From a virus: DNA of 23,373 nucleotides. Positions within the stretch are counted from its first letter, which is position 1. The number at the start of each line of letters is the position of its first letter. Both the position numbers and the translations under genes were made by a program. Positions 19,599 to 20,425 of the stretch are shown piece after piece. Location: positions 1 to 23,373 of IMG/VR virus record IMGVR_UViG_3300009609_000067, one strand, 5' to 3'. The notes under the pieces were generated by a model, which was not told where the DNA came from, searched no databases, and worked only from the letters and a program-made list of their open reading frames with translations.

Positions 19599-19687
19599 AG
19601 CCCGATGCCCCACACTGTCCACGCTGTGGGAGTTACCAGTGGACGTATCGCGGCGATCGTCAGTGTTGTCTAGACTGTGGCCGATGA
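19595..19687 (+). CDS. Tiny zinc-ribbon protein
   Basis: A 30-residue frame starts at GTG overlapping the previous stop and ends overlapping the methyltransferase ATG (ATGA). It contains C8-P-R-C11 and C25-L-D-C28 with an intervening WTYRGDRQ, a compact zinc-ribbon with CxxC knuckles. The tight overlaps at both ends and the cysteine pattern argue for real coding. A longer reading through the preceding gene was rejected because the upstream residues have no cysteine pattern. Function unknown. Confidence 0.6.
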   Translation: MKPDAPHCPRCGSYQWTYRGDRQCCLDCGR

Positions 19688-20394
19688 CAGTCGGATCCCT
19701 CTTCAGCGGGATCGGTGGCTTTGACCTGGGCTTTGCGCGGGCGGGCTTCGAGATCACATGGCAAGTCGAGATCGACGACTACGCGAGCGCGGTGCTCGCC
19801 CAACACTGGCCGAACGTGAGGCGCTATCGCGATGTCCGAACTGTTACAGGAACCGACCTTGAATCAGTTGATGTTATTTGCGGAGGCTTTCCCTGTCAGC
19901 CGCACTCCCTCGCTGGCCAGCGTGGCGGATCGCACGACGAACGCGATCTGTGGCCCCAGTTCGCCCGAATTATTCGCGAGTCTCGGCCTCGGTGGGTGGT
20001 CGCAGAGAACGTGTCAGGGCTTCTATCCTCAGAGGCTGGACGGTTCTTTAGCACCATTCTCGGAGACTTGGCCGCGTGCGGGTATGACGCGGAATGGGAC
20101 TGCCTACCGGCTGCCGCCTTCGGCGCCCCTCACCGCAGAGATCGAGTCTGGATCGTGGCCTACCCTGGACGCGAGTCCGCACAAGTATCGGTTCCGCGGA
20201 TCTTCACAGCAGAGCAAGAGCCTCAACGGGATCCATGGTGGGCAGTTGAACCCGCTGTGGGCCGAATGGCTCATGGGATACCCGCTCGGTTGGACAGGCT
20301 TACCGGATTGGGCAACGCGATCGTTCCGCAGATCGCGGAATGGATCGCACGGCAGATCAAGACGGCAGAAGGGAACCGATGCGCTATGCGTTGA
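19684..20394 (+). CDS. dcm: DNA (cytosine-5) methyltransferase, compact phage form
   Basis: The 236-residue enzyme would transfer a methyl group from SAM to cytosine C5 in a short target. Motif I is LFSGIGGFDLGF (6-17), motif IV GGFPCQ with catalytic C71, motif VI ENV (108-110), motif VIII RRDRVW (151-156), and motif X GLGNA (208-212). It is shorter than typical bacterial Dcm proteins (about 330-470), mostly because the target-recognition region between residues 157 and 205 is small. ATG 19684 overlaps the zinc-ribbon stop. A second long frame lies inside it at +1 (see the nested gene). Confidence 0.93.
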   Translation: MTVGSLFSGIGGFDLGFARAGFEITWQVEIDDYASAVLAQHWPNVRRYRDVRTVTGTDLESVDVICGGFPCQPHSLAGQRGGSHDERDLWPQFARIIRESRPRWVVAENVSGLLSSEAGRFFSTILGDLAACGYDAEWDCLPAAAFGAPHRRDRVWIVAYPGRESAQVSVPRIFTAEQEPQRDPWWAVEPAVGRMAHGIPARLDRLTGLGNAIVPQIAEWIARQIKTAEGNRCAMR

Positions 20395-20425
20395 TCGTCG
20401 CGGCGTTTCTCAGCAGCGGGTGTGA
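19832..20425 (+). CDS. Nested +1-frame gene within dcm: phage SETWPRxGMTRNG / LNPxWxEWLMG-type protein
   Basis: A 197-residue frame lies inside the methyltransferase gene, one base out of phase, for all but its last 31 bases. Its sequence matches what I know as a recurring phage protein pattern: LFAEAFPVSRTPSLASV (15-31), SETWPRAGMTRNGTAYRLPP (77-96), ESGSWPT (105-111) and GGQLNPLWAEWLMGYPLGWT (136-155). These same bases encode motifs IV, VIII and the region before motif X of the methyltransferase in the other frame. GAGG about ten bases upstream could drive translation. It may be a genuine second product or a shadow conserved only because Dcm is; both are considered in the findings. The role is unknown. 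Confidence 0.5.
   Translation: MSELLQEPTLNQLMLFAEAFPVSRTPSLASVADRTTNAICGPSSPELFASLGLGGWSQRTCQGFYPQRLDGSLAPFSETWPRAGMTRNGTAYRLPPSAPLTAEIESGSWPTLDASPHKYRFRGSSQQSKSLNGIHGGQLNPLWAEWLMGYPLGWTGLPDWATRSFRRSRNGSHGRSRRQKGTDALCVDRRGVSQQRV

What the first reader, a model, noticed from the sequence alone, without database searches (positions are those of the whole stretch)
19832..20394. A second, family-like gene is nested in the +1 frame of the Dcm-type methyltransferase
Seen: two long open frames over the same 563 bases. One carries all main cytosine-C5 methyltransferase motifs. The other carries SETWPRAGMTRNGTAYRLPP, ESGSWPT and LNPLWAEWLMGYPLGWT, a set of motifs I recognise as recurrent in phage proteins annotated on their own. 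The correspondences are exact: the bases for FPCQPHSL also give FPVSRTPS, those for RDRVWIVAYP give ESGSWPT, and those before the GLGNA motif give LNPLWAEWLMG. Inference: either both frames are translated and constrained, a rare dual-coding case spanning a catalytic enzyme, or the recurring 'family' in databases is largely a Dcm shadow. In either case this is worth resolving, because it would change how many phage genes are annotated.
Basis: partly seen in the sequence, partly recalled or inferred. Interest (0 to 1): 0.85.

Follow-up and report, generated by a model that had tools for sequence, protein, structure and literature searches.

The report
Methyltransferase subunit hidden in second frame
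One stretch of this phage's DNA is read in two ways to make what look like both halves of a DNA-methylating enzyme, an arrangement known from one characterised restriction-modification enzyme and found here in many phages, bacteria and archaea.

Summary
Frame 19684-20394 (alpha) is a C5-cytosine methyltransferase with motifs I-VIII and X but no motif IX. The +1 frame, 19832-20425 (beta, 197 aa), belongs to phrog_1008 and carries motif IX (LNPLWAEWLMGYPLGWT). Among 68 alpha genes fetched by the Dcm frame alone, the +1 frame has 42 stops against 269 expected under synonymous shuffling; the +2 frame has 637 against 637. A beta profile built from other organisms scores the real +1 frames at 195 bits and shuffled ones at 79 (68 of 68 above all shuffles). 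Nineteen ordinary single-chain methyltransferases show no effect. All 152 loci fetched by beta overlap an alpha, so no stand-alone beta was found. In mycobacteriophages the motif IX-X module sits in the alpha frame or the beta frame, which ties it to the enzyme. Best reading: a two-polypeptide enzyme of the M.EcoHK31I kind. That kind is known; its breadth, the frame-switching module and the conserved dual-coded beta N-part seem undescribed in the papers I could search. Expression and activity are untested.

The parts
19684..20394 (+). alpha: catalytic chain of a C5-cytosine DNA methyltransferase (236 aa from ATG 19684; GTG 19639 and TTG 19666 are alternative starts)
   Evidence: PF00145 2.3e-53 over motifs I-VIII only; phrog_363 9.5e-82; AlphaFold pLDDT 84.8, M.HhaI Z 26.6 over 216 residues
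19832..20425 (+). beta: second chain in the +1 frame (197 aa), nested in alpha except for its last 31 bases
   Evidence: phrog_1008 2.8e-22; stop depletion and extra conservation beyond the alpha shadow
19817..19821 (+). TGAGG, possible Shine-Dalgarno site for beta, 10 nt before ATG 19832; it contains the last +1 stop codon (TGA 19817-19819)
   Evidence: read directly; starts with such cores are enriched across the family
19699..19719 (+). alpha motif I, LFSGIGG
19882..19899 (+). alpha motif IV, GGFPCQ, with the catalytic cysteine
20002..20019 (+). alpha motif VI, ENV (in AENVSG)
20131..20157 (+). alpha motif VIII, HRRDRVWIV
20305..20331 (+). alpha motif X, GLGNAIVPQ
   Evidence: helix 215-235 in the alpha model
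20060..20119 (+). beta N-part core, SETWPRAGMTRNGTAYRLPP
   Evidence: W80 P81 G84 G89 conserved in at least 90% of 94 betas; constrained in all architectures
20144..20164 (+). beta WPT element, ESGSWPT, first copy of the PTP repeat seen in longer relatives
20237..20296 (+). beta motif IX, GGQLNPLWAEWLMGYPLGWT
   Evidence: conserved P141 E145 M148 G149 P151 W154; equivalent stretch aligns to the end of PF00145 when it lies in one chain

Best explanation
This is a two-polypeptide C5-cytosine DNA methyltransferase whose subunits come from one overlapping gene pair. Alpha folds as the catalytic large domain: SAM binding, the PCQ catalytic cysteine, ENV, motif VIII and the motif X helix. It lacks the small domain and motif IX. 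Beta is translated from an internal start in the +1 frame. It carries motif IX and probably part of the target-recognition surface, plus a conserved N-part (SETWPRAGM.RNG). The two are inferred to assemble into one enzyme that methylates a specific DNA site, most likely to protect the phage from host restriction. Shown here by sequence: both frames are constrained, beta is specific to this alpha class, and the motif IX-X module can belong to either chain. Inferred: translation of beta, assembly, activity, target site and biological role.
For: Stops in the +1 frame 42 against 268.6 expected, +2 frame 637 against 637.0, in 68 genes ascertained without beta. Cross-collection beta profile 195 bits real against 79 shuffled, 68 of 68; motif IX part 53.6 against 1.8 bits in 53 genes. 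Fourfold third positions change less in the overlap. Canonical C5 methyltransferases show no effect, 234 against 223. 152 of 152 loci fetched by beta overlap an alpha at the same offset, in phages, many bacterial phyla and archaea. Alpha's Pfam match ends at motif VIII and its model is the large domain plus the motif X helix. In mycobacteriophages the PTP, IX and X module lies in the alpha frame (PF00145 then covers nearly its whole length) or in the beta frame, and one pair differs by one frameshifting base inside the stretch. Internal starts with Shine-Dalgarno cores of 5 or more occur in 35% against 5% in shuffles. Precedent: M.EcoHK31I has motif IX alone in its smaller chain (PMC3404938).
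Against: No expression, binding or activity data. Beta alone folds poorly (pLDDT 60), and no alpha-beta complex could be modelled. The window betas do not match PF00145 themselves; motif IX is assigned through the single-chain relatives. Alpha keeps a constrained stretch of its own opposite motif IX whose role is unclear.
Confidence: 0.85

Rival explanations
1. Dcm shadow: only the methyltransferase is real, and the +1 similarity follows from its conserved residues and codon bias.
For: A shadow does exist: shuffled alphas still score 79 bits, and a few canonical enzymes reach 20-33 bits against the beta profile.
Against: Stops are depleted sixfold only in the +1 frame. The motif IX part has almost no shadow (1.8 bits). 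Synonymous sites are constrained. Canonical enzymes show no depletion.
Confidence: 0.03
2. Ribosomal frameshifting joins alpha's motifs I-VIII to beta's C-part in one chain, rather than two separately started chains.
For: Natural single-base indels do create such fused ORFs (L011, L022, L064), and single-frame relatives carry all motifs.
Against: In the window such a chain would lack motif X. The beta N-part, which overlaps alpha motifs VI-VIII, would be skipped, yet it is conserved. Internal starts with Shine-Dalgarno cores are enriched. No slippery-site search was made.
Confidence: 0.06
3. Beta is a real protein with a different job, for example a regulator or inhibitor of alpha or of a host system, and the resemblance to motif IX is secondary.
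For: The beta N-part stays constrained in mycobacteriophages whose motif IX lies in the alpha chain (30 of 30), so beta does something besides supplying motif IX.
Against: The C-part is the same module that occupies the motif IX-X place of single-chain enzymes, and alpha lacks motif IX wherever beta carries it in the loci read.
Confidence: 0.06

Closest known systems
M.EcoHK31I (YGGCCR), two-polypeptide C5 methyltransferase (Lee et al. 1995, cited in PMC3404938)
   Same: Larger chain with motifs I-VIII and X, smaller chain with motif IX. From memory, its beta gene is also nested in alpha in another frame.
   Different: It belongs to a restriction-modification system, while the window gene sits among phage genes. 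PMC3404938 places its TRD in the larger chain; the window alpha has only about 50 residues there. No direct sequence comparison was possible.
M.AquI (CYCGRG), two-polypeptide C5 methyltransferase (PMC3404938)
   Same: C5 methyltransferase split into two chains near the variable region. The mycobacteriophage group with L281 and L307 resembles it: alpha to motif VIII, beta with IX and X.
   Different: In the window, motif X is in alpha, and the two genes overlap almost completely.
M.HhaI and M.HaeIII, single-chain C5 methyltransferases
   Same: Same catalytic fold and motifs I-VIII and X
   Different: They carry motif IX and a full small domain in one chain. Nineteen canonical C5 genes show no +1 signal.
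phrog_1008, labelled 'DNA methyltransferase' in PHROGs
   Same: The window beta and all 94 aligned betas match it
   Different: The label describes the catalytic enzyme; the family is the beta chain, with motif X at its end only in part of the family.
Paenibacillus larvae phage genes Shelly gp55/gp56 and Leyra gp61/gp62
   Same: Same nested +1 arrangement, both frames annotated; Shelly's record notes 'g55 internal gene'
   Different: Annotation only; the records give no role for the inner protein.

Membership tests
[quoted passage not shown]
   Motifs located; Pfam and NCBIfam matches stop at motif VIII; model shows large domain plus motif X helix
M.EcoHK31I-type two-polypeptide C5 methyltransferase | Motif IX is in the smaller chain | tested here: met
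   LNPLWAEWLMGYPLGWT in beta; the equivalent module aligns to the C-terminal part of PF00145 in single-frame relatives. Assignment is by homology, not structure.
M.EcoHK31I-type two-polypeptide C5 methyltransferase | Smaller gene nested in the larger in another frame (feature from memory) | tested here: met
   19832-20425 in the +1 frame of 19684-20394; same offset in 152 of 152 loci
M.EcoHK31I-type two-polypeptide C5 methyltransferase | TRD in the larger chain (PMC3404938) | tested here: inconclusive
   Window alpha has about 50 residues between motifs VIII and X, of which 189-209 are under pLDDT 50; longer relatives have PTP repeats here
M.EcoHK31I-type two-polypeptide C5 methyltransferase | Both chains needed for methylation | not testable with these tools
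   Needs expression and an assay
M.EcoHK31I-type two-polypeptide C5 methyltransferase | Sequence homology to M.EcoHK31I alpha and beta | not tested
   Neither sequence nor the original paper was available
M.AquI-type two-polypeptide C5 methyltransferase | Smaller chain carries motifs IX and X | tested here: not met
   In the window motif X is in alpha; it is met in some mycobacteriophage relatives
Canonical single-chain C5 methyltransferase (Dcm type) | Motifs I-X in one chain | tested here: not met
   Motif IX is absent from alpha; PF00145 covers 1-166 of 324
phrog_1008 | Profile match of the +1 product | tested here: met
   2.8e-22 for the window, 94 of 94 family members

The most novel reading that the evidence does not exclude
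An ancient, widespread class of two-subunit methyltransferases in which the beta N-part (WPxxGMxRNG) is always dual-coded over the catalytic motifs VI-VIII of alpha. The recognition, IX and X module moves between the two chains by small indels, so that one lineage shifts between nested, single-chain-like and split architectures. The beta N-part would be a required element of unknown fold and role, and many 'hypothetical' or 'methyltransferase' entries would really be beta subunits.
Probability: 0.5. Interest if true: 0.68.

Novelty: new member of a known kind. Interest (0 to 1): 0.56.

Why it matters
It turns a puzzling annotation (two overlapping 'methyltransferases', or a hypothetical protein alone) into a testable enzyme with two chains. 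Annotation that forbids long overlaps drops one half: of the records read, some list only the outer frame, some only the inner, some both. Neither Pfam nor NCBIfam has a model that hits the window's beta, and PHROGs labels it as the catalytic enzyme. It also offers a clear natural test bed for long dual coding, seen in phages, many bacterial phyla and archaea, with built-in controls (the +2 frame and canonical relatives).

Tried and rejected
Stand-alone beta genes: SOVA965 and Mwe-JY08 looked stand-alone by annotation, but both have the alpha frame open. A conserved start codon at alpha's conserved Asp of DVR: GAT is no commoner there than elsewhere. Sequence search of the beta profile against PDB: nothing credible. 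Pfam scan of 94 betas: no consistent family. AlphaFold of beta alone: low confidence, so not used for a fold search. Profile comparison of the beta family with Babsiella gp54 aligned only the PTP repeats. Plasmid searches did not turn up a record named M.EcoHK31I or M.EaeI. Literature: in the held papers that mention M.EcoHK31I I found no discussion of its overlap or of its spread in phages, but the library lacks most subscription journals and the 1995 paper.

Full report
What is there. The window is a tailed-phage or prophage contig: terminase, head, portal and tape-measure genes, integrase and HNH genes. Near its right end, frame 19684-20394 encodes a 236-aa C5-cytosine methyltransferase (PF00145 2.3e-53, phrog_363 9.5e-82). 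In the +1 frame, ATG 19832 to 20425 encodes 197 aa. The +1 product has no Pfam or NCBIfam match but hits phrog_1008, labelled 'DNA methyltransferase'.

Is it more than a shadow? I shuffled synonymous codons within each alpha gene, which keeps the alpha protein and its codon usage. For 68 distinct viral genes fetched with the alpha protein only, the +1 frame had 42 stops against 268.6 expected and was wholly open in 39 against 1.4 expected. The +2 frame, an internal control, had 637 against 637.0. A beta profile built only from 70 bacterial and archaeal loci scored these viral +1 frames at a mean of 195 bits; shuffled genes gave 79, and all 68 exceeded all their shuffles. Split by region, in 53 genes, the N-part gives 91.3 against 30.5 and the motif IX part 53.6 against 1.8 bits; for the window itself 77.7 against 28.6 and 50.2 against 2.0 (the N-part profile rests on 14 sequences only). 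Fourfold-degenerate third positions change less in the overlap than in alpha's own non-overlapped N-terminus, for example 0.28 against 0.55 at 70-80% protein identity (the pairs are not independent). As a specificity control, 19 canonical C5 methyltransferases taken from genomes by PF00145 show 234 +1 stops against 223 expected. So a shadow exists, but it explains only part of the N-part similarity and nearly none of the motif IX part. In the reverse test, with beta held fixed, alpha's own C-terminal stretch is also constrained (44.9 against 28.7 bits, above all shuffles in 75 of 93).

Does beta ever stand alone? No case was found. All 72 viral and 80 genomic loci fetched by beta have an alpha overlapping at the same offset. 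By their record titles the genomic loci include archaea, Pseudomonadota, Bacillota, Bacteroidota, Actinomycetota, Cyanobacteria, Planctomycetota and Spirochaetes. In a sample of one bacterial class phrog_1008 occurs in 14 of 289 genomes, and in a sample of one phylum in 3 of 296. One class-sample locus, L252, showed only the motif IX part, at weak score. Annotators vary: SOVA965 lists only the inner frame, Leyra lists both as methyltransferases, Shelly notes 'g55 internal gene', and vB_PlaS-1/A lists only the outer one.

What does beta do? Alpha matches PF00145 and TIGR00675 only up to motif VIII, and motif X follows after about 50 residues. Its AlphaFold model (pLDDT 84.8) is the methyltransferase large domain plus the motif X helix, with residues 189-209 under pLDDT 50. 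It matches M.HhaI at Z 26.6 over 216 residues. The canonical small domain and motif IX therefore seem to be missing from alpha. Beta's conserved C-part, LNPxWVEWLMGFPxGWT, is encoded by the DNA just before motif X. The strongest link comes from mycobacteriophage relatives. In one group the PTP repeats, EWMMGxPxGW and GNGVxPQQA run in the alpha frame; PF00145 then covers 1-314, 2-317 or 2-322 of 324 in three of four proteins tested, and phrog_1008's C-part matches the same residues in the two of these scanned. In another group alpha ends soon after motif VIII and beta carries the repeats, IX and X. L276 and L281, 95% identical over the stretch compared, lie one on each side; apart from a length difference at the end of the compared stretch, one frameshifting base separates them. 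A sequencing error there cannot be excluded. The beta N-part stays in +1 over alpha motifs VI-VIII in both groups and is constrained there too (57.9 against 16.2 bits, 30 of 30), so it has a role beyond motif IX that I cannot name.

How is beta made? Among 158 alpha genes, an in-frame ATG or GTG shortly before the conserved beta region with a Shine-Dalgarno core of at least 5 bases occurs in 35% against 5% in shuffles, and of at least 6 in 19% against 1.7%. Part of this excess may come from the open frame itself, since the scan stops at a stop codon. The position varies between loci. In the window the last +1 stop is at 19817-19819, and ATG 19832 follows TGAGG by 10 nt. Independent internal initiation is the likeliest mechanism; it was not measured.

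Comparison with the known. PMC3404938 states that M.EcoHK31I has motifs I-VIII and X in the larger chain and motif IX in the smaller, and that M.AquI splits with IX-X in the smaller. The window pair matches the first; the second mycobacteriophage group resembles the second. That M.EcoHK31I's small gene lies in another frame of the large gene is my recollection; the original paper was not held. So the window is a new member of a known kind. The breadth, the switching module and the conserved N-part are, as far as the held literature shows, not described.

Limits. All evidence is comparative. Expression, assembly, target site and biological role are inferred. Beta alone did not fold confidently. 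Bit scores depend on profiles from related loci, though profile and test sets came from different collections. Many loci are metagenomic, so single-base indels in them may be errors.

Noticed in passing
20379-20394: All three forward frames are in use over 16 bases: the end of alpha, beta, and the start (ATG 20379) of a downstream 201-aa ORF that begins like a lipoprotein (MRYALIVAAFLSSGCEID) and has no Pfam or PHROG match.
   Followed up: partly
L264, L267, L269, L276, L281, L282 (mycobacteriophages): The PTP-repeat, IX and X module is in the alpha frame in some close relatives and in the beta frame in others. L276 against L281 differ by one internal frameshifting base after motif VIII; in L282 the indel falls inside motif VIII and may be a broken allele or an error.
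   Followed up: partly
L011, L022/L023, L049, L064-L066: Single-base shifts join alpha's motifs I-VIII to beta's motif IX in one ORF, leaving motif X in another frame; real or sequencing errors.
   Followed up: partly
L206 and L232: Two alpha-beta methyltransferase pairs, or parts of them, lie in tandem.
   Followed up: no
L003-L241, beta between the WPTP element and motif IX: The stretch varies greatly in length and often repeats a WPTP..D element; it lies over the variable region of alpha and may be part of target recognition.
   Followed up: no
19684-20394: Val codons of the gene are unusual for this phage: GTT 6 of 21, against 6 of 312 in ten other long ORFs of the window, as expected where a second frame limits synonymous choice.
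   Followed up: partly
literature, PMC4722110: A Bacillus prophage orphan C5 methyltransferase is predicted there to share the M.EaeI or M.EagI target; it may be another alpha-beta pair. Its sequence was not examined.
   Followed up: no
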